Positions 49,085-63,443 of a stretch of DNA of 64,000 nucleotides are shown here, in pieces (positions within the stretch are counted from its first letter, which is position 1; the number at the start of each line of letters is the position of its first letter). Under the pieces are notes generated by a model that worked only from the letters and a program-made list of their open reading frames with translations, did not search any database and had not been told where the DNA came from. The translations under genes were made by a program, and so were the position numbers. Origin of the DNA: Modestobacter lapidis (lineage in GTDB: Bacteria; Actinomycetota; Actinomycetes; Mycobacteriales; Geodermatophilaceae); NCBI GenBank assembly GCA_019779905.1, contig JABAKE010000007.1:1-64000 (forward strand), read 5' to 3'.

Positions 49085-50665
49085 TCAGGTGCGCCCGGTG
49101 ACCGTCCGTAGCACGTGGCCCGGGTCCGCCGGGGCCACGTCGCCGGTCCAGACCACGTACTGGTCGGGCCGCACGAGGACCAGGCGCGCCCCGTAGGCCG
49201 CCCGCTCTCCGGCGGCGGTGTCCCGGACGACGGTCAACGGGACACCGGCCACCTCGGCCGACTCCCGGAAGGCCTCCACGGCGGAGCTCTCCGCGTCGAA
49301 AGCGAGCAGGGTGAACCCTGTGCCGAGCTCCTCGAAGACGTTGCTGCCCCAGGACAGCGGCTGTGGCGGCAGATGGTGCCCGGCCTGGGCCGTGAAGGTG
49401 TGCTCACCGTGGGCGCTGATGACACCGCCTGGCGGGCCCAGCACGACCGGGGACCCCTCGTACCGGGGTTCGAAGTTCCGCAGCCGCTTGCCGAAGCCCT
49501 TCGCGGCCTCCTCGAACCGGCGCTCGAACTCCGCCCGGTCCACCGAGGGGCTGTACTGCTCGAGGAAGGCCCGGTCGTCCCGGATCCAGCCGCCGATGAT
49601 GTCCTCGCCGACGTCGCGGAAGATCGCCTGCCGCTCGACGCTGTAGGAGTCGAGCAGCGCGTCCCCGCCCCAGCCCGCCAGCACCGCGGCCAGCTTCCAG
49701 CTGAGGTTGACCGCGTCCTCGAGTCCGTTGTTGAGGCCGAAGCCCCCGTAGGGCGGGTGGGTGTGCGCGGCGTCCCCGGCGATGAACGCCCGGCCCGAGC
49801 GGTACACGTCGGCGACCTGCACGCGCAGGTCCCAGAAGCCCACGTGGTCGATCTCGCAGTCGAAGGCGAACCCGGCGGCCTGGTGGAGCAGGCCGGCGAA
49901 GTCGAAGTTCTCCACGGTGCTCCCGGCGGGCACCGGTGCGTGGAAGAAGAACTCCTCACCCACGTCGACACGGCCGAAGAACTTCCAGTAACCCTTGAGG
50001 TCCGGGTGCATGACGCGGTAGGTCGACCGGTCCGGGAACCGCTTGAGCGCCTCGTGCAGCTCGGGGGACCGGAACACGACCAGCGCGACCAGCTCGTCGA
50101 AGTCGGTGCCGCTGCGGGCGATGTCGGCCTGCTCCCGGACCAGTGAGTGGCCGCCGTCGCAGCCGACGACGAATTCGCCCTCCAGCTCCTCCTGGACGCC
50201 GTCCTTCTCCATGACCACCCGGACACCGTCCGGGTCCTGCTCGACGCTGATGGCCTTCCAGCCGACGTGCATGTCCACGTTCGGGAGGTCGGCCAGCCGC
50301 TGCCGCAGCACCGCCTCGGTGCGGTACTGCGGCAGCCGCTCGTTCGCCTGGAAGTAGAATGGGGCGACGAGCTCGCGGGCCGGGGGCGCGTGCCAGAAGT
50401 CGCTCAGCAGGTTCTCGTAGATCGTGACCTGGCCGATGGGGTGACCGGTCGGCATGGCCCGCGCCGCGCGCAGCTCGTCCACGAGGCCCCAGGACCAGAA
50501 GTGCTCGACCGTCCGCTGGGATAGGCCCTGGCCTTTCGGAATGCTCGACAGCTGGGGCCGCCGCTCGATCACCGCACACGACACCCCGCGGAGCCCCAGG
50601 TCGAGGGCGAGCCCCACGCCCACCGGACCTCCACCGACGATGACGACCTGGTGCCGTGGGGTCAT
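49085..50665 (-). CDS. FAD-dependent aromatic hydroxylase (MhpA/phenol hydroxylase-like)
   Basis: The 526-residue group A flavin monooxygenase has VVIVGGGPVGVGLALDLGLRG (FAD dinucleotide site), the VVGCDGGHSLVRE motif binding FAD and NAD(P)H, and RAFIAGDAAHTHPPYGGFGLNNGLEDAVNLSWKLA. A C-terminal thioredoxin-like extension follows, as in MhpA. It hydroxylates a phenolic acid ortho to an existing hydroxyl. ATG 50665 is preferred over ATG 50671 because GAGG is better spaced. A FadR-like operator lies 56 bases upstream, linking it to the second aromatic island. Confidence 0.92.
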   Translation of the reverse strand: MTPRHQVVIVGGGPVGVGLALDLGLRGVSCAVIERRPQLSSIPKGQGLSQRTVEHFWSWGLVDELRAARAMPTGHPIGQVTIYENLLSDFWHAPPARELVAPFYFQANERLPQYRTEAVLRQRLADLPNVDMHVGWKAISVEQDPDGVRVVMEKDGVQEELEGEFVVGCDGGHSLVREQADIARSGTDFDELVALVVFRSPELHEALKRFPDRSTYRVMHPDLKGYWKFFGRVDVGEEFFFHAPVPAGSTVENFDFAGLLHQAAGFAFDCEIDHVGFWDLRVQVADVYRSGRAFIAGDAAHTHPPYGGFGLNNGLEDAVNLSWKLAAVLAGWGGDALLDSYSVERQAIFRDVGEDIIGGWIRDDRAFLEQYSPSVDRAEFERRFEEAAKGFGKRLRNFEPRYEGSPVVLGPPGGVISAHGEHTFTAQAGHHLPPQPLSWGSNVFEELGTGFTLLAFDAESSAVEAFRESAEVAGVPLTVVRDTAAGERAAYGARLVLVRPDQYVVWTGDVAPADPGHVLRTVTGRT

Positions 50666-50720
50666 GACCATCCTCGTGAACTCGACCGGACGAAACGGCC
50701 GCGGGGGTAGCGGCAGCTAA

Positions 50721-50731
50721 TGGTATGACCA
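50721..50731. promoter_or_regulatory. GntR/FadR-like operator (flavin hydroxylase promoter)
   Basis: Read toward the hydroxylase gene it is TGGT-CAT-ACCA followed by TTAGC. It fits the FadR-type consensus TNGTNNNACNA perfectly. The adjacent CATTAG may be part of the promoter -10 region. Confidence 0.75.
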
Positions 50732-50858
50732 AGACTAGTGGAGTGACCTGGAGCGAGCGAGTGACCGGACGTCCGCGCCCCCGATGGCGCCCGGGCGTCG
50801 GCGCCTGGCCCGGCCGTCCGCCGGTGACCGGGCGGGCAGGGCAGGGCAGGACGGGATC

Positions 50859-51245
50859 GTGACCAGGGCGCTGCGCGAGGGCGACCCGGTCGTCGGGATC
50901 GTGTCCCCGGGGGAGATGGGCGGCGCGCTCGGTGCAGCCCTGGGTCGGGGTGGCGCGCGGGTGGTCGCCACCACGACCGGGCGCAGCGGACGGCACCGTG
51001 GAACTGACCGGGCGGGCTGGGCTCGACCTTGTGGACGACCTCGACGAGGTCGTCCGGCGATCGTCGGTGCTGCTGTCGGTGGTCCCACCTCAGCACGCCC
51101 GCGCCGTCGCCGAGGATCTGGTGGCCCGGGCGCGACGGCTCGGCGTCCGCCCGACCCTGGTCGACCTCAACGCGGTGACCCCGGCCGAGGTGTCGGGCAT
51201 CGCAGCGCTCGCCCGCGACGCGCAGATGGATGTCGTCGACGGGTG
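50859..51245 (+). pseudogene. broken NAD-binding 6-phosphogluconate dehydrogenase-like gene
   Basis: The GTG at 50859 opens a Rossmann start (PVVGIVSPGEMGGALGAALG, then ARVVATTTGRS). Near 50985-50995 homology shifts by one frame into ELTGRAGLDLVDDLDEVV, SVLLSVVPPQHARAVAEDL and LVDLNAVTPAEVSGIA. These pieces together form the first 125 or so residues of a 6PGDH-like/DUF1932 dehydrogenase. The C-terminal helical domain is missing: at about 51245 the sequence runs straight into a EutA-like fragment. One frameshift and a deletion mark it as dead. Confidence 0.8.
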
Positions 51246-52211
51246 CTGGACCGGGGCCGGGTCGTGGCTACCGCAGCGGTGCACGTGGGTGGCCGGCTCC
51301 AGGTCGTGGACGAGGCCGGGAGGATCGTCCGGCTCGACCCGGCCGGCAGTGGGCACGCCGCCCGGGCCGGCTACGCGTGGGAGCTGGGTGACACCGCCAC
51401 CGAGGAGGAGTTGACGCAGGTCGCGGAGACGATGGCCGACGCGCTCGTGGCCGCGGTCACCGGCGACCCGCCGCCCGCGGACGTGCTCTCCCTGTACCTG
51501 ACCGATCCGCTCGTCGAGGTCGGCCCCATTGACGGTGTCATGTTCTCCGGTGGTGTGGCCGAGTACGTCTACGACCGCGAGACCGAGCGGTTCGGCGACC
51601 TCGGCCGGCCGCTCGGCCGGGCGATCCGGGCCCGGGTCGACTCCGGTGCGCTGCCATACCCACTACTGCCGGCGGGCGAGTGCATCCGCGCGACCGCCCT
51701 GGGAGCGTCCGAGTACAGCGTCCAGCTGAGCGGCAACACCGGCTGCATCTCCGACCCGGACGCACTGCTGCCGCGGCGCAACCTGCAGGTGCTCCGGCCC
51801 AGCTACGAACTCGGGGACACCGTGGACCCGGTCACGGTGGCCACGGCCATCCGGCGCCACCTCGTCGCCCTGGACGCCGCCCACGCCGACGCCGACATCG
51901 CGCTCGCGATGTCGTGGACCGGGCTGCCCAGTCACGCCCGGCTGCTCGCCTTCGCCCAGGGGGTCCGCGACGGTCTGGCCGAACGGATCGCGCTGGGCAA
52001 GCCGGTCTACGTGATGCTGGACGGCGACGTCGCGATGACCCTGGGCCGGCTCCTGCGACAGGAGCTCGGCGTGCTCACCGGCCTGCTGGTCGTCGACGGG
52101 CTCGCCCTGCGCGACTTCGACTGGATCGACATCGGCCGGATGCGATACCCGTCGAACACCGTGCCCGTGACGATCAAGTCCCTCGTCTTCAGCCAGAGCC
52201 CCGGAGTCTGA
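51243..52211 (+). pseudogene. 5'-truncated EutA-like (ethanolamine ammonia-lyase reactivase) gene
   Basis: The open frame encodes 322 residues from a fortuitous GTG at 51243. It matches the C-terminal two-thirds of EutA: GRVVATAAVHVGGRL, GYAWELGDTATEEEL, DGVMFSGGVAEYVYDRE, EYSVQLSGNTG and ALAMSWTGLPSHARLLAF. The N-terminal ATPase lobe, about 150 residues or more, is absent. No ribosome-binding site precedes the GTG. A single deletion fusing it to the 6PGDH remnant explains both. The frame itself is intact, so the loss may be recent. Confidence 0.8.
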
Positions 52212-52260
52212 CCCGGCGCGGCGGTCGCCCACTCCCCGAGCCGGGCAGGGCGCCCCCGGA

Positions 52261-53034
52261 TCAGTCGTGCGCGACGGCCGTCGCCCCGACGCGGTCGGCG
52301 GTCCGGCGGAGGTGCGTGTTCATCAGCGCGGTCGCTGCCTCGACATCCCGCTGCGTGATGGCACCGACCAGGGCGCGGTGTTCCTCCACGCCGTGCCGGC
52401 CATGCGCCGGTGCTGCTTCGCGTGCGCGCTCGAGCGATCGGAGCAACGGGGCGTGCAGCGACTCGACGAACATGGTGACCGCACGGTTGTGCGCCGAGCC
52501 CGCGAACCGCGTGTGCCATTCGGCGGACAGTTCGAGCGGGTAGGCCTCGGACGTCAGTGCGGCATCGCTGCGGTCGCAGATGTCGTACAGCGCAGCGATA
52601 TCCTCCTCGGTCGCACGCTCGCACACCAGCGGGACGACCCCGAGTTCGAACACCATGCGCGCCTCGGTGACCTCCACGGCGGTGATCGACGCCAGCGAGA
52701 TCAGGTCGACGATGCCCTCGCCGACGAGACGGCTGCTCGGTGCCGTCACGAAGGCCCCGCCCCGCGCACCGACGCGGATCTCGACCAATCCGTTGGCCTC
52801 GAGGACGCGCAGTGCCTCGCGGACGGTCACCCGGCTCACGCCGAACCGCTCGCACAGCTCCCGCTCGGAGGGCAGCCGGTCCCCGGCGACGAGCCGGCCC
52901 TGCCGGATCAGCAGCCGCACCTGGTCGACGATCACCTCGGAGATGCGCCCGATGCTGACGCGGCTCAGCAGGTCGCCGGTGCCCGCAGTTGCGACTCCGT
53001 GTGCAGCAGCGGGAGGCGTTCCTGGCATGGTCAC
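52261..53034 (-). CDS. GntR-family (FCD) regulator of the second aromatic island
   Basis: The 257-residue protein has an N-terminal GntR winged helix (IVDQVRLLIRQGRLVAGDRLPSERELCERFGVSRVTVREALRVLEANGLV) followed by an all-helical FCD ligand domain (SAEWHTRFAGSAHN and EEHRALVGAITQRDVEAA). It likely represses until an aromatic acid binds. The GTG at 53034 lies six bases after a TAGGAT -10 hexamer, which implies a leaderless, self-regulated transcript. Similar operators occur before the hydroxylase, ferredoxin, Rieske and dehydrogenase genes. Confidence 0.92.
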   Translation of the reverse strand: MTMPGTPPAAAHGVATAGTGDLLSRVSIGRISEVIVDQVRLLIRQGRLVAGDRLPSERELCERFGVSRVTVREALRVLEANGLVEIRVGARGGAFVTAPSSRLVGEGIVDLISLASITAVEVTEARMVFELGVVPLVCERATEEDIAALYDICDRSDAALTSEAYPLELSAEWHTRFAGSAHNRAVTMFVESLHAPLLRSLERAREAAPAHGRHGVEEHRALVGAITQRDVEAATALMNTHLRRTADRVGATAVAHD

Positions 53035-53046
53035 CCGGTCATCCTA

Positions 53047-53057: not shown

Positions 53058-53127
53058 CGGCGTACGGGCGCTATGTCCCGCATGGCGGAAGCTCGATCGG
53101 CAGAGCCGGATCCCGGTGGGGCATCAT

Positions 53128-53871
53128 CTAGCGCCCCTGGTCGGCGACCTCGGCCGCCGCGGTGGCCGCGGCCTCCGGTTCCAGGTACTCGCCGCCGCGT
53201 CTGCGCGGGTCGAGTCCGGGGCCCAGCTCGTAGCGCAGGGGCATGCCGGTGGGGATGTTCAGCTCCAGGACCTCGTCGGCGGACAACTCGTCCACGTGGG
53301 CCACCAGGGCCCGCAGCGAGTTGGAGTGCGCTGTGACGAGCACCGTGCGCCCGGCCCGAAGATCCGGGGCGATGGCGTCCAGCCAGTAGGGCAGCAGCCG
53401 GTTCTGGACGTCGCGGAGGCTCTCCGTCCGCGGGCGGAGTTCGTGGTCGACGATCCCGTAGCGGGGGTCCGTCGTCACGTCCCACTGGCTGCCGGGCTCG
53501 ATCGGGGGCGGCTTCAGGTCGTAGGACCGCCGCCACTGCTGGAACAACTCGTCGCCATAGCGCCTCCGGGCGGTTCTCCGGTCCATGCCCTGCAGTGCGC
53601 CGTAGTGCCGCTCGTTGAGCCGCCAGGTGCGGTGTGCCGGGATGTCCTCCCGGCCGGCTGCCGCCAGTGCCAGCATGCCGGTGCGCACCGCGCGGGTCAG
53701 CATCGAGGTGTGCAGCACGGCGGGCAGGACGCCGGCGGAGCGCAGGAGTGCGCCGCTGCGCCGCGCCTGCTCGACCCCTCGGGACGTGAGCTCGACGTCC
53801 ACCCAGCCGGTGAAGAGGTTGCGGGAATTCCACTCGCTCTCACCGTGGCGGAGGAGTACCAGCGTCGGCAC
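53128..53871 (-). CDS. 2,3-bisphosphoglycerate-dependent phosphoglycerate mutase family protein
   Basis: The 247-residue protein has the [29 protein letters not shown] phospho-histidine motif, [14 protein letters not shown], and [12 protein letters not shown] with the second catalytic histidine. That is the GpmA pattern, although [12 protein letters not shown] carries Ser where GpmA has Gly-Asn. A glycolytic paralogue embedded in an aromatic island is odd. It may be a second mutase for growth through pyruvate, or have another phosphatase substrate. GTG 53871 is the start. It diverges from the ferredoxin gene across a GntR-type site. Confidence 0.9.
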
Positions 53872-53973: not shown

Positions 53974-54297
53974 GTGCCAAAGGTGATCTATGTGGGCGAC
54001 GCCGGCCAGGAGCACGCCGTCGACGCGGTGCCGGGCGAGTCGGTCATGGTGACGGCGGTGAAGAACGGTGTTCCCGGAATCATCGGCGAGTGCGGGGGAA
54101 ACGCGTCCTGCGCGACCTGCCACGTGTGGGTCCGGGACGAGTTCCTGCCCCTCGTCGGACACCCTGACGACATGGAGGAGGACCTCCTCGACATGGCGGT
54201 TTCCGAGCGGCGTGAGGGGAGCCGACTGTCCTGTCAGATCCGCGTCGCCGCAGAACTCGACGGACTGACGGTCGACGTCCCCCCGGAGCAGCCCTGA
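53974..54297 (+). CDS. 2Fe-2S ferredoxin (adrenodoxin type)
   Basis: The 107-residue protein has the cluster pattern Cys40, Cys46, Cys49 and Cys87 (CGGNASCATCHVW, then LSCQI), typical of adrenodoxin/putidaredoxin-like ferredoxins. It is placed 98 bases before the Rieske oxygenase gene and is likely its electron donor. No matching reductase is nearby. GTG 53974 follows GGAGAGGACTCGAG. Confidence 0.93.
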   Translation: MPKVIYVGDAGQEHAVDAVPGESVMVTAVKNGVPGIIGECGGNASCATCHVWVRDEFLPLVGHPDDMEEDLLDMAVSERREGSRLSCQIRVAAELDGLTVDVPPEQP

Positions 54298-54395: not shown

Positions 54396-55682
54396 GTGCT
54401 TCGTCAGGAAATCAACGAACTGCTGACCCAGACCGGACCGAGGACGCCGATGGGCGAGCTGTTCCGGCAGTACTGGATGCCCGCCTGTCTGGCCGAGGAG
54501 CTCCCGGAGGACGGCTGCCCGCCGATCCGGCTCAAGCTGCTGTCCGAGCGTCTGGTGGCCTTCCGGGACAGCAAGGGCCAGTACGGGCTGATCGACGAAT
54601 TTTGCGCACACCGCGGCGTCTCGCTCTGGTTCGGCCGGAACGAGGAGGGCGGGCTGCGCTGCCCTTACCACGGCTGGAAGTACGACACGACGGGCCAGTG
54701 CCTCGACGTCCCGTCCGAGGCCGACAACAGCAGCTTCGCCGAGAACGTGAAGCTCACCTCCTACCCGCTGGTCAAGATCGGCGACGTCCTGTGGACGTAC
54801 ATGGGCGACCCGGCCACGCAGCCGCCGCTGCCGGAGTTCGAGTTCGCCCAGGTGGCCCCCGAGCAGACCTACACGTCCAAGCGCTGGCAGCAGTCCAACT
54901 GGATGCAGGCCTTCGAGGGCGGCATCGACTCCAGTCACGTGACGTTCCTGCACTCCGGCGGTCTCAAGACCGATCCGCTGTTCAAGGGTGCGAAGGGCAA
55001 CGAGTACAACCTCAACGACACCAAGCCGTTCTTCGAGGTCGCCGACAGCGAGGGGGGCCTGTTCGTCGGCGCACGACGCAACGCCGAGGACGGCAAGTAC
55101 TACTGGCGGATCACGCCGTGGGTCATGCCCTGCTTCACGATGGTCCCGCCGCGCGGTGACCACCCGATCCACGGCCACTTCTGGATTCCGATCGACGACG
55201 AGAACTGCTGGGCGTACAGCTTCGACTACCACCCGGTCCGGGCCCTGACGCCCGAGGAGCGGCAGGCCATGATCGACGGCCACGGCGTGCACAGCGAGAA
55301 CATCCCGGGCACCTACCGGCCGACGGCGAACATGGACAACGACTACCTGATGGACCGCGAGGCGCAGCAGCGCGGCGAGTACTACTCCGGCGTCAAGGGC
55401 ATCGCGATCCAGGACTCCTCCCTGCAGGAGAGCATGGGCCCGATCGTCGACCGCACCAAGGAGCGGCTCGTACCTGCGGACAGCGGCATCATCAAGGCCC
55501 GGCAGAAACTCCGGAAGGCCGCGCTCGCGCTGCGCGACCAGGGCGTCACGCCGCCCGGGGTGGATCCGGCGCACCACCGGGTGCGCTCCGCGGCGGTCGT
55601 GCTACCGCAGGCGGAGTCCTTCCTGGACGCGGCCCGTGACGACGTGCGGGTCCATCCCGGCATGCCGGTCGCGTCGGTCTGA
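54396..55682 (+). CDS. Rieske aromatic oxygenase, phthalate 4,5-dioxygenase type
   Basis: The 428-residue single-subunit oxygenase has a Rieske site at Cys70/His72 and Cys89/His92 (FCAHRG, CPYHGWKYDTTGQC). The iron site lies in EGGIDSSHVTFLH (His181, His186). The GIAIQDSSLQESMGPIVDRTKERL region marks the phthalate 4,5-dioxygenase/3-chlorobenzoate dioxygenase group. It acts on a benzoate-type acid by dihydroxylation or O-demethylation. With two dihydroxyphthalate-decarboxylase homologues downstream, a phthalate isomer is the best guess. GTG 54396 follows AGAGGAGA. No beta subunit is expected. Confidence 0.9.
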   Translation: MLRQEINELLTQTGPRTPMGELFRQYWMPACLAEELPEDGCPPIRLKLLSERLVAFRDSKGQYGLIDEFCAHRGVSLWFGRNEEGGLRCPYHGWKYDTTGQCLDVPSEADNSSFAENVKLTSYPLVKIGDVLWTYMGDPATQPPLPEFEFAQVAPEQTYTSKRWQQSNWMQAFEGGIDSSHVTFLHSGGLKTDPLFKGAKGNEYNLNDTKPFFEVADSEGGLFVGARRNAEDGKYYWRITPWVMPCFTMVPPRGDHPIHGHFWIPIDDENCWAYSFDYHPVRALTPEERQAMIDGHGVHSENIPGTYRPTANMDNDYLMDREAQQRGEYYSGVKGIAIQDSSLQESMGPIVDRTKERLVPADSGIIKARQKLRKAALALRDQGVTPPGVDPAHHRVRSAAVVLPQAESFLDAARDDVRVHPGMPVASV

Positions 55683-56185
55683 TGGCCGTCGAGACGAGCC
55701 TGCTGAGCAGCTGCGCCCGGGCCGCCACCGCGGCCGAGGCCCGCTTCCGGATCGACCGGCCCATCCGGCCCGCGCGCGCCGCCCGGATCATCGCCCTGGA
55801 CGAGCGGGCCGCCGGGATCGCCCGCCGAGCGGCGGCGGTCGAGTGGGCGAGCGCCCAGTTCCTGGTGTGCGAGGGCGTCGCCGGCGGCGGGGCGATCGGC
55901 GACTTCCTCCTGCGCGGCATCGAGGGGGAGCCGGTGGTGCTGGAGCAGACCCTCGCGGGCGCCGACGTCGTCGTCATGCTCGCGACCGACGACCGCGGCG
56001 CCGGCTGTGCGTACGCGCTGGGCAAGGCGTGCTGGGAGCGCGGCATCATGACCGCCGGCCTGGTGCTGAGCGACGAGTCCGGGGCCGACCAAGCGGTGGC
56101 CGCGCTCCGGCCGCACGCCCGGGTGCTGCTGCCCACCGCGGATGAGACCGACCTGACCGAGCTGCTGGCGGCACTGCGGGCCTGA
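55682..56185 (+). CDS. unrecognised 167-residue protein of the aromatic island
   Basis: It begins with a helical region rich in Ala and Arg (RIDRPIRPARAARIIALDERAAGI). It continues with alternating strand/helix segments (EPVVLEQTLAGADVVVMLAT, CAYALGKACWERGIMTAGLVLS) that look like a Rossmann-type nucleotide or cofactor-binding half-domain, but no glycine-rich loop is obvious. The ATG overlaps the Rieske oxygenase stop (TGATG), so the two are made together, which implies an intimate role. I cannot assign a family. Confidence 0.75.
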   Translation: MAVETSLLSSCARAATAAEARFRIDRPIRPARAARIIALDERAAGIARRAAAVEWASAQFLVCEGVAGGGAIGDFLLRGIEGEPVVLEQTLAGADVVVMLATDDRGAGCAYALGKACWERGIMTAGLVLSDESGADQAVAALRPHARVLLPTADETDLTELLAALRA

Positions 56186-56257: not shown

Positions 56258-57091
56258 ATGGACGACAAGGTCAGCCTGCGCAGCCTCCAGCAGATGAAGG
56301 ACGACGGTCGCAAGATCGTCGGCGTCGTCGCCTGGGACTACCAGATCGCGCGGATCGTGGACCGCGTGGGCGTGGAGATCGTCTCCGTCGGCGACACGGT
56401 CGGGGTGAACCTCTGGGGCCACAGCAACCCCTTCGAGGTCACGATGGAGGAAATGCTGGTCGTCACCCGGGCGGTCCGGCGCGGCGTGACCCGCGCCCTG
56501 GTCAGTGCCGACTTTCCGTTCGGGCCCCTGCAGGAGGGCGCCGACAGCGCCGTCCGGGCGGCCATCCGGTTCGTGAAGGAGGCCGGCGTCGACCTGGTGA
56601 AGCTCGACGCCGCCGCCGACTACCTCGATGCGGTCGAGGCCGTCACCCGGGCCGGCATCCCGGTCTTCGCCCAGTTCGGGATCACGCCGCAGACGGCGCT
56701 GCGCTACGGCGTGGAGTACAGATCGATCCCCTCGGCCGCCGACGCGGTGCCCGAGGAGCTCCAGGACGAGCTCGTCGCCGAGGCCCGCCGGCTGGAGGAG
56801 GCCGGGGCGGCCCTGCTGAACTTCACCAACTCCGGCCCGGTGGTGGGCGCTGCCGTGGCCCAGGCGGTCTCCGTCCCGGTCGTCGGCGGGTTCGGCGGCG
56901 GCCCGTGGCTCGACGGCCGGATGCGGATGGCGCACGCCGCGATCGGCTACGCCGCCTCGGCGATCGACGACCCGCCGGACACCTACGCCAACGTCGCGCA
57001 GACCACGCTCGACGTGCTGACGCGCTACGCCGAGGACGTCCGCGGGGCCCGGCAGCTCCCCGGCGGCATTCCGGTACCCCCCGCCACCTGA
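56258..57091 (+). CDS. PanB-like (ketopantoate hydroxymethyltransferase family) protein
   Basis: The 277-residue TIM-barrel protein resembles PanB: IVGVVAWDYQIARIVDRVGVEIVSVGDTVGVNLWGH, the VSADFPFG loop, and DLVKLDAAADYLDAV with PVFAQFGITPQTAL. PanB moves a one-carbon unit onto a 2-oxo acid; the metal-binding Asp residues are recognisable. Found within an aromatic operon, and with no other pantothenate gene, it more likely does an aldol or retro-aldol step on a 2-oxo acid from ring degradation. It starts at ATG 56258 after GAGGG. Confidence 0.85.
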   Translation: MDDKVSLRSLQQMKDDGRKIVGVVAWDYQIARIVDRVGVEIVSVGDTVGVNLWGHSNPFEVTMEEMLVVTRAVRRGVTRALVSADFPFGPLQEGADSAVRAAIRFVKEAGVDLVKLDAAADYLDAVEAVTRAGIPVFAQFGITPQTALRYGVEYRSIPSAADAVPEELQDELVAEARRLEEAGAALLNFTNSGPVVGAAVAQAVSVPVVGGFGGGPWLDGRMRMAHAAIGYAASAIDDPPDTYANVAQTTLDVLTRYAEDVRGARQLPGGIPVPPAT

Positions 57092-57129: not shown

Positions 57130-57978
57130 GTGCCCACCGCCGTCGTCGACGGGATTCCCACGCGCTACGAGGTCACCGGGGCCGGCCCGCCGTTGCTGAT
57201 GTTCTCCCCCGGCGGGTTCGACTCGACGCTGGAGAGCTGGCGGACGGTCGGGATCTACCGCCGCCTCGGGCTGCTCGAGCACCTGAGCGCGAGCTACACC
57301 TGCATCACGTTCGACCGGCGGGAGTCGGGCCGGTCGGGCGGGCGGGTCGAGCGCGTCTCCTGGGCGGACTACGTCGCCCAGGGGCGCGGACTGCTCGACC
57401 ACCTCGGCATCGAGCGGGCGCACCTGATGGGCGGCTGCGTCGGCTGCTCGACGGTCGCCGCGTTCGGCGTGGCCCACCCGGACCGGGTGCTCAGCATGGT
57501 GCTGTTCTCCCCGGCGGGCGGGGTGAAGTACCGGCTCAAACAGCATTCCCGGTTCGTCCAGCACCTGACGTTCGCCGAGGCCCACGGGCTCCAGGCGGTC
57601 GTCGACCTGGTGCAGGGGACGGACAAGGGCTTCACCGCCGATCCCCGGATCGGCCCCTGGAACAGCGTCATCCGCACCGACCCCGACTTCGCGCAGGCCT
57701 ACGCGCAACTGGACGCCGGCCGCTACGGCGTCCTGGTCAGCGGCATGGCGCGGGTGATGTTCGACCGGGACACCGTGCCCGGCGCCGAGCCGGAGGACCT
57801 GCTGCGGCTCGACGTGCCGGCGCTGATCGTCCCGGGGCAGGACGAGTCACACGCCCCCTCGGCTGCCCGCTACCTCCAGGAGTGCCTCCCCGCGGCGCAG
57901 TACTGGGACGTGCCGGTGGCGGAGCAGACGGCGGAGACCGCCCCGGCGCGCATCCTGCAGTTCCTCGCCGGCCGGTAG
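57130..57978 (+). CDS. alpha/beta-hydrolase fold protein with cysteine at the nucleophile elbow
   Basis: The 282-residue protein has the fold's strand-loop pattern (PPLLMFSPGGFDSTLESW, CITFDRRESGRSGG). The elbow GGCVG (101-105) has Cys103 where Ser is usual. The acid may be the Asp in VPGQDESHAP, but the normal C-terminal GH is replaced by VAEQTAET, so a standard catalytic histidine is missing. It may be a C-C hydrolase or lactonase using unusual residues, or a non-hydrolytic member. It is the last gene of the unit, ending at a bidirectional terminator. Confidence 0.85.
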   Translation: MPTAVVDGIPTRYEVTGAGPPLLMFSPGGFDSTLESWRTVGIYRRLGLLEHLSASYTCITFDRRESGRSGGRVERVSWADYVAQGRGLLDHLGIERAHLMGGCVGCSTVAAFGVAHPDRVLSMVLFSPAGGVKYRLKQHSRFVQHLTFAEAHGLQAVVDLVQGTDKGFTADPRIGPWNSVIRTDPDFAQAYAQLDAGRYGVLVSGMARVMFDRDTVPGAEPEDLLRLDVPALIVPGQDESHAPSAARYLQECLPAAQYWDVPVAEQTAETAPARILQFLAGR

Positions 57979-58019: not shown

Positions 58020-58475
58020 TCAGGTCAGCGTCTCGCCGCGCTCCAGGGCGGCAATCTGATCCAGCCGTCGCTGGTGCACACCACCCTTGAACGGCGTCTC
58101 CAGCCAGGTGGCGAGGATCTCCTCGGCCAGCGCCGGGGAGACGACCTTGGTGCCCAGGATCAGCACGTTGGCGTCGTTGTTCCCCCGCGAGATCCGGGCG
58201 TGGAAGAGGTCGGGGCACACGCCCGCCCGGATACCGCGGATCTTGTTGCAGGCGATGGACTCGCCCTGACCGCTCCCACCGATGACCATCCCGCGGTCCA
58301 CCGACCCGTCGACGACGCGGCGGCAGACGTCGACGCACAGCGGCGGGTAGTCCGCCACCTGCTCGGCGGTGTGCGCCCCGCGGTCGTCGACCGCGTGGCC
58401 GCGGGCCTCGAGCCACTCGACGAGCCGGGTCTTGAGCGCCACGCCGTTGTGGTCGGCCGCGATCGCGATGCGCAC
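58020..58475 (-). CDS. RpiB/LacA-B family sugar-phosphate isomerase-like protein
   Basis: The 151-residue protein has the RpiB pattern: MRIAIAADHNGVALKTRLVEWL, DYPPLCVDVCRRVVDGSVDRGMVIGGSGQGESIACNKIRGIRA and NNDANVLILGTKVVSPALAEEIL. The active-site Cys of RpiB near position 70 is replaced (GGSGQGES where GTGIGM-type is usual). It lies 17 bases downstream of a decarboxylase-like gene, with which it forms an operon. A pentose phosphate role in this setting is unexpected; a keto-enol isomerase on a ring-opened acid is possible. Confidence 0.85.
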   Translation of the reverse strand: MRIAIAADHNGVALKTRLVEWLEARGHAVDDRGAHTAEQVADYPPLCVDVCRRVVDGSVDRGMVIGGSGQGESIACNKIRGIRAGVCPDLFHARISRGNNDANVLILGTKVVSPALAEEILATWLETPFKGGVHQRRLDQIAALERGETLT

Positions 58476-58492: not shown

Positions 58493-59440
58493 TCAGGCGG
58501 TCAGGTCAGTGGTGCCGGGCGCGAAGACGTCCTCCAACGCAACCGGGCGATCCAGGATCCGCTGGTCCACCGCAGAGCGCAGCAACTGCTCCAGGACCGC
58601 CCGGTTCGGCTCGATCCCGTAGGGCAGCGGGTCGGCCCCGGTCACCTCCAGGACCTGCTGGTACATCCGGTCGGTCGCCGTCGGGGCGTCGATCGCCCCC
58701 GACCGCAGCCGATCGACGTACTGCCGCTTGGCCCGGGCGAAGGCGTCGAAGACGGCCGGGCCGACCTCGGGCCGCTCGCGGAGGAGCTCGTCCCGAACCA
58801 CGACCAGGTGGTTGATCGGGTACCGGCCGCGGGTCTGCAGCGCCCGGACGGCGGCCTCCGTCGGGTCCGGGATCAGCGGGACCACGTCCGGGGCATCGAT
58901 GTCGGCGCCGATGACGGCCGCCAGTTCACCGCTGCGCAGCAGCTCCTCCAGCGCGCGGCCGGGCTCGACCGGGACCACGTTGGCCGGCGCCCGGTACTGC
59001 GCGACGTGCTCGTCGCCGGACGGCGCCCAGGTGATCCGGCTGAGGTCCACGCCGTACTCGTCCTGCAGGATCGCCCGGGCCCACACTCCGGTGGTGACGG
59101 TGTAGCCGCGGTTGACCCCGACCGTGCGGCCCTCCAGGTCCTGGGGCGCGCGGACGTCGGAGCCGGCCGCGACCTGGATGGCACCGTGGTGGAAGCCGCG
59201 GACCAGGAAGGCGGGCACGGCGGTGAACGCCACACCGTGCGCCTTCGCGACCAGGTATGTCGTGAGCGCCATCTCGCAGACGTCGAACTCGAGGGTGCGC
59301 ACCATGCGCCGGAAGCCCTGGACGAGGACGGGCACCTCTTCGAACTCGAAGCGGAAGCCCTCGGGCGTCACCGCGCCGCTCTTCAGCGCCTCGTTGTTGC
59401 CCTGGGTGCGGGTGACGGTCTTCAGCAGGTGCTCGGCCAC
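58493..59440 (-). CDS. 4,5-dihydroxyphthalate decarboxylase-like protein (paralogue 1)
   Basis: The 315-residue protein has the periplasmic-binding-protein fold found in Pht5-type decarboxylases: VPVLVQGFRRMVRTLEFDVCEMALTTYLVAK near the start and FLVRGFHHGAIQV. DLEGRTVGVNRGYTVTTGVWARAIL and GRYPINHLVVVRDELL follow. There is no signal peptide, so it is cytoplasmic and more likely an enzyme than a transport protein. GTG 59440 follows GAGGAG; the longer upstream frame crosses the divergent promoter. It is transcribed away from a GntR-type operator at 59518. Confidence 0.85.
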   Translation of the reverse strand: MAEHLLKTVTRTQGNNEALKSGAVTPEGFRFEFEEVPVLVQGFRRMVRTLEFDVCEMALTTYLVAKAHGVAFTAVPAFLVRGFHHGAIQVAAGSDVRAPQDLEGRTVGVNRGYTVTTGVWARAILQDEYGVDLSRITWAPSGDEHVAQYRAPANVVPVEPGRALEELLRSGELAAVIGADIDAPDVVPLIPDPTEAAVRALQTRGRYPINHLVVVRDELLRERPEVGPAVFDAFARAKRQYVDRLRSGAIDAPTATDRMYQQVLEVTGADPLPYGIEPNRAVLEQLLRSAVDQRILDRPVALEDVFAPGTTDLTA

Positions 59441-59517
59441 GGGTACTCCTCGCTGGCGCTCGTCGCGCGGTCCAGCGGGCCGTCGTCGACCGGCTGGTGG
59501 ACGGCCGGAACGTAGCA

Positions 59518-59528
59518 TGGTCAGACCA
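59518..59528. promoter_or_regulatory. GntR/FadR-like operator (divergent decarboxylase/dehydrogenase promoter)
   Basis: TGGTC-A-GACCA is a perfect palindrome, followed by ATAG. It lies between the decarboxylase paralogue (minus) and the zinc dehydrogenase (plus), 55 bases from the latter's ATG, and could control both. Confidence 0.8.
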
Positions 59529-59582
59529 ATAGACCTCACGCTACGGTGGCCTCGACGACATCCCAGAACCGAAGGACAGACC

Positions 59583-60695
59583 ATGGCAGAGCAGGTGCTG
59601 GCGGCCGTGCGGACCGGCCCGGGCGTGACCGAGCTGCGCGAGTTCCCGATGCCCGACGTCCCCGACGACGCCGCGCTGCTGAAGGTCGAGGTCGCCGGGA
59701 TCTGCGGCACCGACGTCAAGATGTACGCGAAGCCGCCGTTCGCCGCGCCGGTGATCATGGGCCACGAGAACGTCGGCATCATCGCCAAGGCGGGCCGGAA
59801 GTTCACCGAGAGCAAGGGCCTGGCCGAGGGCGACCGGGTGTTCGTCGAGCACTACGTCGGCTGCATGCACTGCGAGTGGTGCCGGGCAGGGGAGTACCGC
59901 CACTGCGAGCTCACCGACTGGCGGACCAACCCCGACGCGCGCCGCTACGGGTACACGTCGGCGGAGAACCCCGGCCACCTGTGGGGCGGGTTCTCCCAGT
60001 ACATGTACCTGCCGTGGAACGCGGTGACCCACAAGGTGCCCGATGGCGTCTCCGCGGAGCTGGCCGGCCTGGTCACCCCGCTGTCCAACGGCATCGAGTG
60101 GGCGCTGAACGCCGGCGGTGTCGGCTACGCCTCCACGGTGCTCATCCAGGGCCCGGGCCAGCAGGGCCTGTCGCAGGTCGTCGCCGCCAAGCAGGCCGGT
60201 GCGTCGCTGATCATCGTCACCGGCACCACGCGGGACGCCACCCGGCTCGAGCTCGCCACGGCCCTGGGCGCCGACCACGTCATCGACGTGCTGCGGGAGG
60301 ACGCGCTCGCGCGGGTCCTGGAGATCACCGGCGGCAAGGGGGTCGACGTCGTCCTGGACTGCACGTCCGGTGCCGGCACCGCCCCGGTGCTGCTCGGCAT
60401 CGACGCGCTCAAGCGCCGCGAGGGCGTCATGGTGACTCAGGGCGAGCTGGCCGCCTTCCCCAACTTCCCGCTCAAGAAGATGACCGAGAAGTGCATCGCC
60501 CTCAGGAGCGCCCGCGGGCACGGCTATCGTGCCGTCGAGCTCGCGCTGGAGCAGCTCGCCTCGGGGCGCTTCCCGCTGGAGCGGCTGGCCACGCACACCT
60601 TCGGCCTGGAGGACGTCGACCACGCCATCCGGGCGCTGGCCGGTGAGACTGGCGAGGACGCGCTGCACGTGTCCTTGCTGCCGTGGGGGAAGTGA
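59583..60695 (+). CDS. zinc-binding medium-chain dehydrogenase
   Basis: The 370-residue protein has GICGTDVKMY and IMGHENVGII (catalytic zinc Cys and His-Glu). The structural-zinc region is CMHCEWCRAGEYRHC, and the nucleotide site is VLIQGPGQQGLSQVVAAKQAG. It oxidises an alcohol or hydroxy-acid with NAD(P). In this island it may serve as the dihydrodiol or semialdehyde dehydrogenase, since no Gfo/Idh-type or ALDH gene is near. ATG 59583 follows GAAGGACAGACC. It heads the run of LigK-, LigJ- and decarboxylase-like genes. Confidence 0.9.
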   Translation: MAEQVLAAVRTGPGVTELREFPMPDVPDDAALLKVEVAGICGTDVKMYAKPPFAAPVIMGHENVGIIAKAGRKFTESKGLAEGDRVFVEHYVGCMHCEWCRAGEYRHCELTDWRTNPDARRYGYTSAENPGHLWGGFSQYMYLPWNAVTHKVPDGVSAELAGLVTPLSNGIEWALNAGGVGYASTVLIQGPGQQGLSQVVAAKQAGASLIIVTGTTRDATRLELATALGADHVIDVLREDALARVLEITGGKGVDVVLDCTSGAGTAPVLLGIDALKRREGVMVTQGELAAFPNFPLKKMTEKCIALRSARGHGYRAVELALEQLASGRFPLERLATHTFGLEDVDHAIRALAGETGEDALHVSLLPWGK

Positions 60696-60743
60696 GAGCG
60701 GCAGCGCCGGGAAGAGAATGCCGACCATGAGCGAGGAGAACGC

Positions 60744-61433
60744 ATGAGCGTCGTCGTCCGGAATCCCCGCCGCACCGAGCGGGCCGTCGTCGACGGCCTC
60801 GCCGCGTGCGGCGTCTCCACCGTCCACGAGGCCCAAGGGCGCACCAACCTGCTCGACCCGGCGCTGCGGCCGATCTACGCCGGCGCCCGGGTCGCGGGCA
60901 CCGCGGTCACCGTCAGCGTGCCGCCCGGCGACAACTGGATGATCCACGTCGCCGTCGAGCAGTGCCAGGAGGGTGACGTGCTGGTCGTCGCCCCCACGTC
61001 GCCGTCCGAGGCCGGCTACTTCGGTGACCTGCTGGCCACCTCGCTCGCTGCCCGCGGGGTCCGCGGGCTGGTCATCGACGCCGGCTGCCGGGATGTCGCC
61101 GACCTGACCCGGATGGGCTTCCCGGTCTGGTCGCGCCACGTGTCGGCGTACGGCACCGTGAAGGAGACGCTGGGCAGCGTCAACGTGCCGCTGGTGTGCG
61201 CCGGCCAGCTGGTGCAGCCCGGTGACGCCGTGGTCGCCGATGACGACGGCGTCGTCGTCGTGCCGCGGGCCACGGCCTCCCAGGTGCTCGAGGCCGCCCG
61301 CGCCCGGGAGACGAAAGAGGCGGCGGCGCGGGAGCGCTACGCCGCCGGGGAGCTCGGCCTCGACGTCAACGCGATGCGGGATCGGCTCACGAGCAAGGGC
61401 CTGACCTACGTGGACGCGGAGGACGACCAGTGA
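60744..61433 (+). CDS. ligK: 4-carboxy-4-hydroxy-2-oxoadipate aldolase/oxaloacetate decarboxylase (RraA fold)
   Basis: The 229-residue protein has [34 protein letters not shown], then [45 protein letters not shown]. It also has [15 protein letters not shown] and [16 protein letters not shown]. The GDLLA and DAGCRD loops carry the metal and pyruvate-binding residues of LigK/HMG-CHA aldolases. It cleaves CHA to pyruvate and oxaloacetate, the last step of protocatechuate 4,5-cleavage and gallate degradation. GAGGAGAACGC precedes the ATG. Confidence 0.92.
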
Positions 61434-62449
61434 TCATCGACTGTCACGGGCACTACACGACCGAGCCGGCGGCCCTGAAGGACTTCCGGCAGGCACAGCT
61501 CGCCTCCCTCGACGATCCGGCGCTGCCCGCGCCCGAGCTGGCGCCGATCAGCGACGACGAACTCCGGGCGAGCGTGGAGGGCAACCAGCTGCGCGTGCTG
61601 CGCGAGCGCGGCGGCGACCTGATGATCTTCTCGCCGCGGGCATCGGGGATGGGCCACCACGTACCCGACCCGGCCGTCGCGCGGGCCTGGGCGTCCACGA
61701 GCAACGACCTGGTGGCCCGCGTCGTCGGGCTATTCCCGGACAACTTCGCCGGTGTCTGCCAGCTGCCCCAGACCCCCGGCGGCCCGCTGGACGACGCCGT
61801 CGCCGAGCTGCGGCGGTGCGTGGAGACCCTGGGCTTCGTGGGGTGCAACCTCAACCCGGACCCCTCCGGGGGGTTCTGGACGTCCAAGCCGCTCACCGAC
61901 GAGTACTGGTTCCCGCTCTACGAGGCGATGGTCTCCCTCGACGTCCCCGCCATGGTGCACGTCTCCAGCTCCTGCAACCCCAACTTCCACGCCCTCGGCG
62001 CGCACTACCTGAACGCCGACACCGCGGCGTTCATGCAGTTCATCGAGGGCGACCTGTTCACCCGCTTCCCGTCGCTCCGCTTCGTCATCCCGCACGGCGG
62101 CGGCGCGGTGCCCTACCACTGGGGCCGCTACCGCGGGCTGGCCGAGCGGATGGGTCGGCCGCAGCCGTCGACCCTGCTGGACAACGTCTTCTTCGATACC
62201 TGCGTGTACCACCAGCCCGGCATCGACCTGCTGACGCGGGTGATCCCGACGGAGAACATCCTGTTCGCCTCCGAGATGCTGGGCGCGGTCCGGGGTGGAG
62301 ACCCCGAGACGGGCGTCGACTGGGACCACACCAAGCACTACGTCGACCAGGTCCCGTTGACCGACGATCAGCGCCGCCAGGTATTCGAGACCAACGCCCG
62401 TCGGGTCTACCCGCGGCTGGACGCGCAGCTCACCGCTGCGGGGAGGTAG
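61430..62449 (+). CDS. ligJ: 4-oxalomesaconate hydratase (amidohydrolase fold)
   Basis: The 339-residue protein has the amidohydrolase metal motif IIDCHGHYT. It then shows [66 protein letters not shown] and [19 protein letters not shown]. These are LigJ landmarks. LigJ hydrates 4-oxalomesaconate to CHA, the substrate of the aldolase encoded just upstream. The GTG overlaps the aldolase stop (GTGA), so the consecutive enzymes are co-translated. Confidence 0.93.
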
Positions 62450-62453
62450 AGAC

Positions 62454-63443
62454 ATGTCCCGACTGCAGCTGACCTTCGCCTGTGGCGACTACGACCGCAC
62501 CCGCGCGCTGGAGGAGGGCACGGTCCGTCCCGACGGCATCGACCTGACCTACCTGCGACTGCCGGTCGAGGAGACCTTTTTCCGGATGTCCCGGCACCGG
62601 GAGTTCGAGGTCGCCGAGATGTCCCTGTCGTCGTACGTGAAGTCCCTCGACCTCGACGAGCCGCCGTTCGTGGCGCTGCCGGTCTACACCTCGCGGCAGT
62701 TCCGGCACGCCGGCATCTTCGTCAACGTGAACTCGGGCATCGACGAACCCGCGGACATGCGGGGCAAGATCGTCGGTACCCCGGAGTGGCAGCTCACCGC
62801 CAACGTCTGGATCCGCGGCTTCCTCGCCGACCAGTACGGGGTGCCGGTCGACTCCGTCGAGTACCGGACCGGGGGGCAGGAGATGCCGGGCCGGATCGAG
62901 AAGGCCGCCGTCGACCTCGGCGAGCGCATCCGCATCCGGCCCATCCCGGGTGACAAGACCCTCTCGGCGATGCTGGCCGCGGGTGAGATCGACGTGTTCC
63001 AGGGCCCGCGGGTGCCATCGTCCTTCGTCCCCGGGGGGAACGTCCGGCGGCTCTTCCCCGACCCGGTCGCCGCGGAGCAGGAGTACTTCGCGCGGACCGG
63101 GATCTTCCCGATCATGCACGTCGTCGTCGTCCGCCGGGACGTCTACGAGCGGCACCCGTGGGTGGCCCAGACGCTGACCAAGGCGTTGGGATTGGCCAAG
63201 CAGAAGGCCATGGCCGAGCTGTACGACGCCTCCGCGCTGCGGTTCATGCTGCCGTGGCTCATCCCCGGCCTGGAGGAGGCGCGTGCGCTGCTCGGCGAGG
63301 ACTACTGGTCCTACGGGCTGCAGGGCAACGAGAAGGCGCTGGGGACGTTCCTCCGCTACCACCACGAGCAGGGGCTGTCCCGGCGGCAGTACGAGCCATC
63401 GGAGCTGTTCGCCCCCGAGTCGCTGGAGTCCTTCGTCATCTAG
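62454..63443 (+). CDS. 4,5-dihydroxyphthalate decarboxylase (paralogue 2)
   Basis: The 329-residue protein has LTFACGDYDRTRALEEGTVRPDGIDLTYLRLPVEETFFRM and FEVAEMSLSSYV. YTSRQFRHAGIFVN, WIRGFLADQYGVP and IFPIMHVVVVRRDVYERHPWVAQTL are also present. These match Pht5-type 4,5-dihydroxyphthalate decarboxylase, which yields protocatechuate. It follows ligJ by four bases with GGGAGG upstream. It is closer to the family than the 58.5-kb paralogue. It is the last gene before a strong terminator. Confidence 0.9.
   Translation: MSRLQLTFACGDYDRTRALEEGTVRPDGIDLTYLRLPVEETFFRMSRHREFEVAEMSLSSYVKSLDLDEPPFVALPVYTSRQFRHAGIFVNVNSGIDEPADMRGKIVGTPEWQLTANVWIRGFLADQYGVPVDSVEYRTGGQEMPGRIEKAAVDLGERIRIRPIPGDKTLSAMLAAGEIDVFQGPRVPSSFVPGGNVRRLFPDPVAAEQEYFARTGIFPIMHVVVVRRDVYERHPWVAQTLTKALGLAKQKAMAELYDASALRFMLPWLIPGLEEARALLGEDYWSYGLQGNEKALGTFLRYHHEQGLSRRQYEPSELFAPESLESFVI

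What the first reader, a model, noticed from the sequence alone, without database searches (positions are those of the whole stretch)
49085..63443. Unusual aromatic-acid island: phthalate-type enzymes plus PanB-, RpiB- and mutase-like proteins but no ring-cleavage enzyme
Seen: a phthalate-4,5-dioxygenase-type oxygenase, two dihydroxyphthalate-decarboxylase homologues and LigJ and LigK homologues. Known: these bracket the protocatechuate 4,5-cleavage route. LigAB (ring cleavage), LigC and LigI are absent, while PanB-like, RpiB-like, Cys-elbow alpha/beta and unknown 167-residue proteins are present. Inference: either ring cleavage is encoded elsewhere, or the odd proteins perform a new lower pathway leading to 4-oxalomesaconate.
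Basis: partly seen in the sequence, partly recalled or inferred. Interest (0 to 1): 0.85.

Follow-up and report, generated by a model that had tools for sequence, protein, structure and literature searches.

The report
Conserved aromatic-acid cluster with PanB-like enzyme
A set of about ten neighbouring genes, found in varying completeness in distantly related soil bacteria, appears to break down a polycarboxylated aromatic acid by an uncharacterised route that joins a known lignin-degradation pathway only at its last two steps; the copy in this genome has lost part of it.

Summary
Ring cleavage is absent locally, but the genome has LigAB (contig C275) and PcaH elsewhere. The cluster is no accident: the PanB-like protein has 157 relatives; 80 loci were examined, 76 with the hydrolase, 63 with the Rieske, and six core genes together in 30 of 52 loci with full flanks. 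A same-genus genome has the intact version with a bicupin and full EutA-like gene, which the window has lost. LigJ is in 51 of 51 cluster genomes, LigB (>200 bits) in 13, LigU in 22, neither in 27. In the window's family, Rieske (88% or more) and LigJ (76% or more) occur in the same 11 of 112 genomes. The Rieske is closest to isophthalate dioxygenase, keeps both carboxylate anchors and carries an extra invariant Arg, so a meta-dicarboxylate with a third acidic group is inferred. Best reading: a dedicated, undescribed pathway reaching LigJ/LigK without LigAB or LigU. The ring-opening step is unknown. The bicupin is a weak candidate: 9 of 51 genomes lack it, and two clusters with paralogous bicupins hold gentisate-dioxygenase-like proteins of their own.

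The parts
49085..50671 (-). FAD-dependent aromatic hydroxylase (MhpA-like); peripheral to the cluster
   Evidence: PF01494 225 bits; in 4 of 80 loci, all Blastococcus
50784..51230 (+). degenerate-looking sequence at the place where relatives have the bicupin gene and the first part of the EutA-like gene
   Evidence: no Pfam match for 50932-51411; EutA homology begins only behind it; relatives carry bicupin here
51231..52211 (+). EutA-like gene remnant, C-terminal about 325 codons
   Evidence: PF06277 180 bits; residues 154-476 of 483 of an intact relative, 75% identity; start of homology
52261..53034 (-). GntR/FCD-type regulator
   Evidence: PF00392 and PF07729; 27 of 80 loci
53128..53871 (-). 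GpmA-like histidine phosphatase
   Evidence: PF00300 112 bits; 28 of 80 loci
53974..54297 (+).
   Evidence: PF00111 35 bits; 46 of 80 loci
54396..55682 (+). Rieske oxygenase, closest solved relative isophthalate dioxygenase 9INA
   Evidence: 451 bits to 9ina, 304 to phthalate 4,5-dioxygenase 7fhr; anchors mapped; conservation
55682..56185 (+). 167-aa protein, predicted fold weakly like the nucleotide-binding half of FtsZ; homologues in proteobacterial loci
   Evidence: no Pfam or NCBIfam match; alignment A1; model pLDDT 81; best Foldseek hits FtsZ, E 3e-4, TMq 0.54
56258..57091 (+). PanB-like protein with the metal-binding Asp pair kept and the Glu of the ECVP motif replaced
   Evidence: PF02548 206 bits; below PanB cut-offs; alignment; conservation
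57130..57978 (+). alpha/beta hydrolase with Cys in the nucleophile elbow (GGCVGCS)
   Evidence: PF00561 48 bits; Cys102 in 75 of 75; 76 of 80 loci
58020..58475 (-). RpiB-like sugar-phosphate isomerase family protein
   Evidence: PF02502 157 bits; TIGR01120 141 over 138.65; 38 of 80 loci
58493..59500 (-). 4,5-dihydroxyphthalate decarboxylase homologue 1 (start codon not certain)
   Evidence: 9jp7 115 bits; 55 of 80 loci
59583..60695 (+). zinc-dependent alcohol dehydrogenase family protein
   Evidence: Tdh-type models 135 bits, below cut-offs; 57 of 80 loci
60744..61433 (+). LigK, 4-carboxy-4-hydroxy-2-oxoadipate aldolase
   Evidence: TIGR02798 353 over 304.5
61430..62449 (+). LigJ, 4-oxalomesaconate hydratase
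   Evidence: 6dxq 480 bits over 338 residues; the next kind, the dicarboxybiphenyl meta-cleavage hydrolase, 182 bits
62454..63443 (+). 4,5-dihydroxyphthalate decarboxylase homologue 2
   Evidence: 9jp7 288 bits; 35 of 80 loci

Best explanation
The interval is one copy of a conserved, patchily distributed catabolic cluster for a polycarboxylated aromatic (or heteroaromatic) acid. SHOWN by sequence: the gene set, its conservation, its tie to one kind of LigJ in the window's family, and the missing parts of this copy. INFERRED: the ferredoxin-fed Rieske oxygenase hydroxylates a meta-dicarboxylate carrying a third acidic or polar group; the two decarboxylase homologues remove one or two carboxylates; the Zn-dehydrogenase, Cys-hydrolase and PanB-like protein turn the product into the LigJ substrate, doing the work that LigC, LigI and LigU do in the classical pathway (PanB-like as a metal-assisted 2-oxo-acid isomerase in place of LigU is the guess I rate highest for it); LigJ hydrates and LigK splits the result to pyruvate and oxaloacetate. 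In most genomes examined a bicupin with a EutA-like ATPase accompanies the cluster. In this draft genome the bicupin and half of EutA are missing, so its copy is either decaying or uses the LigAB or PcaH encoded elsewhere. Which enzyme opens the ring is not known.
For: Conservation: 157 PanB-like relatives, 80 kept; of those 80 loci the hydrolase is in 76, Rieske 63, Zn-dehydrogenase 57, DHP-decarboxylase homologue 1 55, LigJ 53, LigK 42 plus 9 more-distant LigK-like, although 28 loci are cut short by contig ends; the six core genes (Rieske, PanB, hydrolase, LigJ, dehydrogenase, DHP-decarboxylase homologue 1) are together in 30 of the 52 loci with full flanks. LigJ link: of 112 genomes of the family 11 have the Rieske at 88% identity or more, and the same 11 have LigJ at 76% or more; 28 others have only LigJ at 62-67%. 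Independence from LigAB/LigU: LigJ 51 of 51, LigB >200 bits 13 of 51 counting the own genome, LigU >200 bits 22 of 51, neither 27 of 51. Substrate: isophthalate dioxygenase is the best solved relative; anchors R234 and H257 are kept as R238 and H261, F249 is R253 and L198 is N202, all four invariant in 62 of 62 loci (roles of the residues from passages of PMC12445078). Aldolase step: in Pusillimonas L058 an HpcH/HpaI-type aldolase sits in the LigK slot. Lost parts: same-genus locus L139 has bicupin and full EutA-like in the same order; neither was found whole in the own genome. Bicupin and full EutA-like are both present in 42 and both missing in 9 of 51 genomes, the own one among the 9.
Against: No enzyme activity, growth or expression data. 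PcaH is over cut-off in 49 of 51 genomes and within about 25 kb of the 20-kb locus in 6 of them, so part of the carbon may simply leave through protocatechuate and the beta-ketoadipate pathway. Of the 12 other genomes with LigB >200 bits, three (G010, G041, G042), like the own genome, show only one close LigJ, so there LigJ may serve both routes. The module is loosely built: RpiB 38, GpmA 28, GntR 27 of 80 loci, and several loci keep little more than PanB-like. Two genomes (G045, G046) have none of LigB, bicupin or PcaH, which fits no ring-cleavage proposal made here; G045's locus also shows no Rieske within 10 kb. The RpiB-like protein meets a plain RpiB cut-off. The hydrolase has Gln near where the usual catalytic His would be (my reading), so a lactonase role is doubtful. 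LigC and LigI were not searched genome-wide. The 80 loci are not independent, many being Streptomyces. Confidence set at 0.60 instead of 0.62 after the recount of single-LigJ genomes.
Confidence: 0.6

Rival explanations
1. Ordinary upper pathway: the Rieske and the decarboxylases turn an isophthalate-like acid into protocatechuate or gallate, which housekeeping PcaGH or LigAB elsewhere cleaves; LigJ and LigK only finish the LigAB branch, and the odd proteins are accessory.
For: Own genome has LigAB and PcaH; its only LigJ above 37% identity is the window's and the LigK beside LigAB is a remnant (LigK not searched genome-wide); PcaH over cut-off in 49 of 51 genomes; three more LigAB genomes have a single close LigJ.
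Against: 38 of 51 cluster genomes lack LigB >200 bits and 27 lack both LigB and LigU, yet all 51 have LigJ; 9 of the 12 other LigAB genomes have a second LigJ of 56-64% identity, in 5 of them (G013, G014, G020, G024, G037) within about 25 kb of LigB and LigU; PcaGH products do not need LigJ or LigK (established pathway knowledge). PanB-like defines the 80 loci and the hydrolase is in 76 of them.
Confidence: 0.22
2. The bicupin is the missing ring-cleavage dioxygenase, and the EutA-like ATPase with its His-rich end loads or reactivates its metal.
For: Ortholog in 42 of 50 cluster genomes at 76-100% identity; bicupin and full EutA-like co-occur in 42 and are co-absent in 9 of 51; His243, His245, His250, His288 and His290 invariant in 21 aligned sequences; His-rich stretch before the EutA domain counted in five genes and seen by eye in a sixth; weak hit to 5-aminosalicylate 1,2-dioxygenase, 26 bits.
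Against: Absent from 9 of 51 cluster genomes including this one; two clusters with paralogous bicupin and EutA-like genes, L149 and L153, have a gentisate-1,2-dioxygenase-like cupin (186 and 273 bits, below the cut-off of 442) and an FAA hydrolase, so the bicupin probably does something else there; best fold matches of a middling model (pLDDT 68) are oxalate decarboxylases.
Confidence: 0.15
3. The substrate is a heteroaromatic meta-dicarboxylate such as a pyridine or pyrone dicarboxylate, and opening is hydrolytic, which would explain the missing ring-cleavage dioxygenase.
For: Isophthalate-type anchors fit any flat meta-dicarboxylate; two genomes lack LigB, bicupin and PcaH alike.
Against: No gene for nitrogen release or a pyridone hydrolase was recognised (not searched for as such); two decarboxylase homologues are hard to place if both carboxylates must survive to the C7 tricarboxylate that LigJ takes.
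Confidence: 0.12
4. In this genome the cluster is a dying remnant with no function.
For: Bicupin not found, EutA truncated, sequence in front degenerate-looking; patchy occurrence, 11 of 112 genomes of the family.
Against: The other genes listed under parts have open frames; the EutA remnant still shows a third-position excess of change against L139 (0.43 against 0.15 and 0.13); seven other cluster genomes lack both bicupin and LigB >200 bits.
Confidence: 0.2

Closest known systems
Protocatechuate 4,5-cleavage / gallate (Lig) pathway
   Same: LigJ and LigK are family members by score and presumably give the same last two steps.
   Different: No LigAB, LigC, LigI or LigU recognised in the cluster; 38 of 51 cluster genomes lack LigB >200 bits; in the window's family the cluster's LigJ (76% or more) is set off from the LigJ of genomes without the cluster (67% or less). 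No tree was built.
Isophthalate dioxygenase (IPDO, Comamonas testosteroni KF1, 9INA/9IOY)
   Same: Best solved relative; both salt-bridge residues kept, plus the Gly and a Thr-to-Ser at the third contact.
   Different: F249 is Arg, L198 is Asn, F333 is Ile, and a separate 2Fe-2S ferredoxin gene precedes it, whereas IPDO works with one cognate reductase (abstract).
PanB, ketopantoate hydroxymethyltransferase
   Same: Same family; metal-binding Asp pair and Lys kept.
   Different: Below PanB cut-offs; Glu of the ECVP motif replaced by Thr in a well-conserved NFTNSGP stretch; canonical PanB elsewhere in the genome.
4,5-dihydroxyphthalate decarboxylase (9JP7)
   Same: Both homologues match over most of their length.
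   Different: One at 288, the other only at 115 bits; reactions not known.
EutA, ethanolamine ammonia-lyase reactivase
   Same: An intact relative (L008) matches PF06277 over the whole model.
   Different: Below the EutA equivalog cut-offs, His-rich front, a bicupin as constant partner; no ethanolamine ammonia-lyase was recognised beside it, though none was searched for.

Membership tests
Protocatechuate 4,5-cleavage pathway | LigAB-type extradiol dioxygenase in the cluster | tested here: not met
   the seven PF02900 hits in the own genome lie on other contigs; LigAB on C275
Protocatechuate 4,5-cleavage pathway | LigU, 4-oxalomesaconate tautomerase | tested here: not met
   no match in the own genome at E 1e-20 with a query that meets NF033377
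Protocatechuate 4,5-cleavage pathway | LigC and LigI | tested here: inconclusive
   none recognised among the products of the interval that were scanned; not searched in the whole genome
Protocatechuate 4,5-cleavage pathway | LigJ and LigK | tested here: met
   480 bits to 6dxq; TIGR02798 353 over 304.5
Isophthalate dioxygenase | R234 and H257 carboxylate anchors | tested here: met
   R238 and H261, 62 of 62 loci
Isophthalate dioxygenase | I246, F249, I294, F333 pocket | tested here: not met
   V250, R253, V298, I336 in the window; in 62 loci R253 and I336 invariant, V250 in 58 and V298 in 55, Ile in the rest
Isophthalate dioxygenase | activity on isophthalate | not testable with these tools
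   needs purified protein
PanB | score over the PanB equivalog cut-off | tested here: not met
   153.5 against 207.55 bits
PanB | catalytic Glu (E181 in E. coli numbering, recalled) | tested here: not met
   aligned with Thr190; Thr in 78 and Gln in 2 of 80 loci
EutA | full-length protein | tested here: not met
   only residues 154-476 of 483 remain in the window; whole in 42 of 51 genomes
alpha/beta hydrolase of the PcaD/MhpC kind | nucleophile-Asp-His triad | tested here: inconclusive
   Cys102, Asp237 and His240 in 75 of 75; Gln265 in 73 of 75 near the usual His position, by my reading; no structure made
4,5-dihydroxyphthalate decarboxylase | homology to the solved enzyme | tested here: met
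   288 and 115 bits

The most novel reading that the evidence does not exclude
The cluster encodes a new lower pathway for polycarboxylated aromatic acids that makes the LigJ substrate without LigAB, LigC, LigI or LigU: the bicupin-EutA pair, Zn-dehydrogenase, Cys-elbow hydrolase and PanB-like protein are non-homologous stand-ins, with a PanB-fold enzyme turned into a tricarboxylate isomerase or C-C lyase, and, in genomes with no LigB, bicupin or PcaH, a ring opening that is not done by any known dioxygenase class.
Probability: 0.35. Interest if true: 0.82.

Novelty: new variant of a known kind. Interest (0 to 1): 0.62.

Why it matters
Versions of the gene set occur in Streptomyces, Blastococcus, Mycobacterium, Planotetraspora, Betaproteobacteria and others, so the compound it degrades is probably common in soil (inference), yet the literature searches made here did not find the pathway described. 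It would give a function to a PanB subfamily, to a cupin that sources name 'ethanolamine ammonia lyase-activating protein' and to a 167-aa FtsZ-like orphan, and it could supply enzymes for degrading benzene polycarboxylates.

Tried and rejected
Ring cleavage by LigAB as a general part of the cluster: rejected. Bicupin as certain ring-cleavage enzyme: weakened by its absence in 9 of 51 genomes and by two paralogous clusters with a gentisate-dioxygenase-like protein. Riboflavin (Lum) catabolism as the source of the gene set: of PMC12746152 I saw the outline and section 6 part 1; the genes described there differ. PanB induced on salicylate in Rhodococcus TFB (PMC3937715, passages): the listed peptides (such as VKLEGGER) are of the canonical PanB kind. 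An in-frame TGA flagged inside EutA-like genes of four genomes (G012, G015, G016, G029) was not seen in the tblastn alignments, which showed only C-terminal stops in L017 and L024; dropped. Literature: nine searches were answered; three papers were opened in part (PMC12445078, PMC12746152, PMC3937715), of the others I saw listings only; one search returned 1,035 papers of which 20 were listed, nearly all materials chemistry, so it says little. The held library lacks most subscription papers.

Full report
WHAT IS THERE. The interval 49085-63443 holds, in order: a MhpA-like FAD hydroxylase (-), a broken EutA-like gene (+), a GntR/FCD regulator (-), a GpmA-like phosphatase (-), then a + run of ferredoxin, Rieske oxygenase, a 167-aa protein, a PanB-like protein and a Cys-elbow alpha/beta hydrolase, then RpiB-like and DHP-decarboxylase homologue 1 (-), then Zn-dehydrogenase, LigK, LigJ and DHP-decarboxylase homologue 2 (+). 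LigK and LigJ are firm: TIGR02798 353 bits against a cut-off of 304.5 and 480 bits to solved LigJ with nearly the whole length aligned. The PanB-like protein is not the biosynthetic enzyme by score: it fails the PanB cut-offs and a canonical PanB of 364 bits sits on contig C90. The RpiB-like protein does meet an RpiB cut-off, narrowly.

RING CLEAVAGE ELSEWHERE. Seven PF02900 matches occur in the own genome, none in the window. One, on C275, is a LigB (PRK13366 385 bits over 317) with LigA directly before it (PF07746). Around it, named by eye, are a VanA-like Rieske reading frame, an esterase and an IclR regulator, and there is a LigK remnant of about 88 residues. LigU was not found in the own genome at E 1e-20. 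PcaH is present on the window's own contig, 128 kb beyond the window's end, with a weaker match beside it.

THE CLUSTER IS CONSERVED. A scan of one genome per species with the PanB-like protein found 157 relatives, of which 80 loci were kept, at 66-88% identity, in Actinomycetota, Beta-, Gamma- and Alphaproteobacteria, Acidobacteria and others, partly MAGs. Of the 80, 52 have about 10 kb on both sides. Among the 80: hydrolase 76, Rieske 63, Zn-dehydrogenase 57, DHP-decarboxylase homologue 1 55, LigJ 53, 167-aa protein 53, ferredoxin 46, LigK 42 (plus 9 more-distant), EutA-like 42, bicupin 39, RpiB 38, DHP-decarboxylase homologue 2 35, GpmA 28, GntR 27, MhpA 4; six core genes together in 30 of the 52. 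Some loci, such as L063 to L065, keep little besides PanB-like. Proteobacterial loci add a 99-115-aa Cys-rich protein and a CobW-type GTPase, and a divergent homologue of the 167-aa protein. In Pusillimonas L058 a HpcH/HpaI aldolase stands where LigK is in other loci.

A DEDICATED LIGJ. In 51 genomes (50 cluster genomes plus the own) LigJ is found in 51. LigB over 200 bits is in 12 of 50 plus the own genome, LigU over 200 bits in 22 of 51, and 27 of 51 have neither. Of the 12 genomes with LigB, five (G013, G014, G020, G024, G037) have a second LigJ of 59-64% identity within about 25 kb of LigB and LigU, four (G026, G028, G036, G049) have a second LigJ of 56-63% elsewhere, and three (G010, G041, G042) have only one; in G013 and G020 LigK lies in the same stretch, and the G020 LigU meets the 4-oxalomesaconate tautomerase model. 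In the window's family, 112 genomes, 11 have the Rieske at 88% or more (a twelfth match, G074, is 56%), and exactly those 11 have LigJ at 76% or more; 28 others have only LigJ at 62-67%, and G140, one of the 11, has further copies at 74 and 64%. So this kind of LigJ goes with the cluster even where it lies tens of kilobases away.

SUBSTRATE. The best solved relative of the Rieske is isophthalate dioxygenase of C. testosteroni KF1. From passages of PMC12445078 (outline and abstract) the key residues are G172, T175, R234, I246, F249, H257, I294 and F333, R234 and H257 forming salt bridges with the two carboxylates, and V178A with F249H letting phthalate and terephthalate in. Mapped on the window: G176, S179, R238, V250, R253, H261, V298, I336, and L198 becomes N202. 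R238, H261, R253, N202, S179 and I336 are invariant in 62 of 62 loci. I infer a meta-dicarboxylate with a third acidic or polar group; benzene tricarboxylates, hydroxyisophthalates and pyridine or pyrone dicarboxylates fit. The two decarboxylase homologues fit the loss of carboxylates on the way to a C7 product.

THE ODD PROTEINS. PanB-like: D46, D85 and K115 kept in 80 of 80, and the position of the PanB Glu is Thr (78) or Gln (2); the catalytic roles are recalled. Hydrolase: Cys102, Asp237 and His240 in 75 of 75; Gln265 in 73 of 75. The 167-aa protein: predicted with pLDDT 81 as a Rossmann-type fold whose nearest solved neighbours are FtsZ (E 3e-4, TMq 0.54), a weak match. Bicupin: source names 'ethanolamine ammonia lyase-activating protein', a metal-binding His pattern in the C-terminal cupin, model pLDDT 68 with oxalate decarboxylases as best folds. 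Bicupin and full EutA-like co-occur in 42 and are co-absent in 9 of 51 genomes, and in the seven stretches fetched paralogous bicupin and EutA-like genes also lie near each other, so they look like a two-gene unit; a His-rich stretch precedes the EutA domain in five genes counted and in a sixth by eye. I infer an ATPase that loads or reactivates the cupin's metal.

THE WINDOW'S COPY IS INCOMPLETE. Same-genus locus L139 has bicupin, full EutA-like, GntR, GpmA, ferredoxin, Rieske and the rest in one row. In the window the EutA-like homology begins at about 51231, no bicupin was found in the genome (a draft of 383 contigs, completeness given as 100), and the sequence in front looks degenerate. 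Genus: G140, called same genus by the tool, has a contig of 12608 bases whose gene positions match those of L029, Modestobacter muralis, so the window is probably from that GTDB genus.

HOW IT LIKELY WORKS. Hydroxylation of a meta-dicarboxylate by the Rieske; decarboxylation; an unknown opening; conversion to the LigJ substrate by Zn-dehydrogenase, Cys-hydrolase and PanB-like protein in place of LigC, LigI and LigU; LigJ and LigK to pyruvate and oxaloacetate. Only the last two steps rest on strong homology. The ring-opening enzyme is the main gap: LigB, bicupin and PcaH are all missing in G045 and G046, although G045's locus has no Rieske within 10 kb.

NOVELTY. Nine literature searches in the held open-access library (listings, three papers opened in part) gave no description of this cluster. 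I class it as a new variant of aromatic-acid catabolic clusters, with a fair chance of new chemistry.

Noticed in passing
window 16999-17110 (-): TPP riboswitch (RF00059, 60.6 bits).
   Followed up: no
window 35306-47203: Second catabolic-looking cluster: P450 (PF00067) and class II aldolase (PF00596); TctA/TctB-like transporter genes, SDR, ferredoxin, ferredoxin reductase and IclR regulator named by eye. Proteins of L153 match its IclR (44%), class II aldolase (41%) and reductase (38%).
   Followed up: partly
L148, L149, L150, L151, L152, L153, L154: Paralogous bicupin and EutA-like genes (bicupins 31-52% identical) recur together in other loci, with gentisate-1,2-dioxygenase-like cupins and FAA hydrolases in L149 and L153 and a UbiD-like decarboxylase (below cut-off) in L150: a general two-gene unit of unknown function.
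   Followed up: partly
L088:6208-6471 (own genome, C275): LigK remnant of about 88 residues at 67% identity near LigAB.
   Followed up: partly
L093 (own genome, C175): Another cluster with a LigB-family protein, an amidohydrolase about 34-36% identical to LigJ and several LigK-like stretches.
   Followed up: no
G017, G019, G038, G027, G033, G035: PcaH lies inside or within about 25 kb of the PanB-like cluster locus in these 6 of 49 genomes with PcaH.
   Followed up: no
L034, L052, L057, L058 and other proteobacterial loci: A 99-115-aa Cys-rich protein (GCPPLETV ... ending in Cys-Cys) and, in several, a CobW-type GTPase are part of the proteobacterial version; function unknown, metal handling suspected.
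   Followed up: partly
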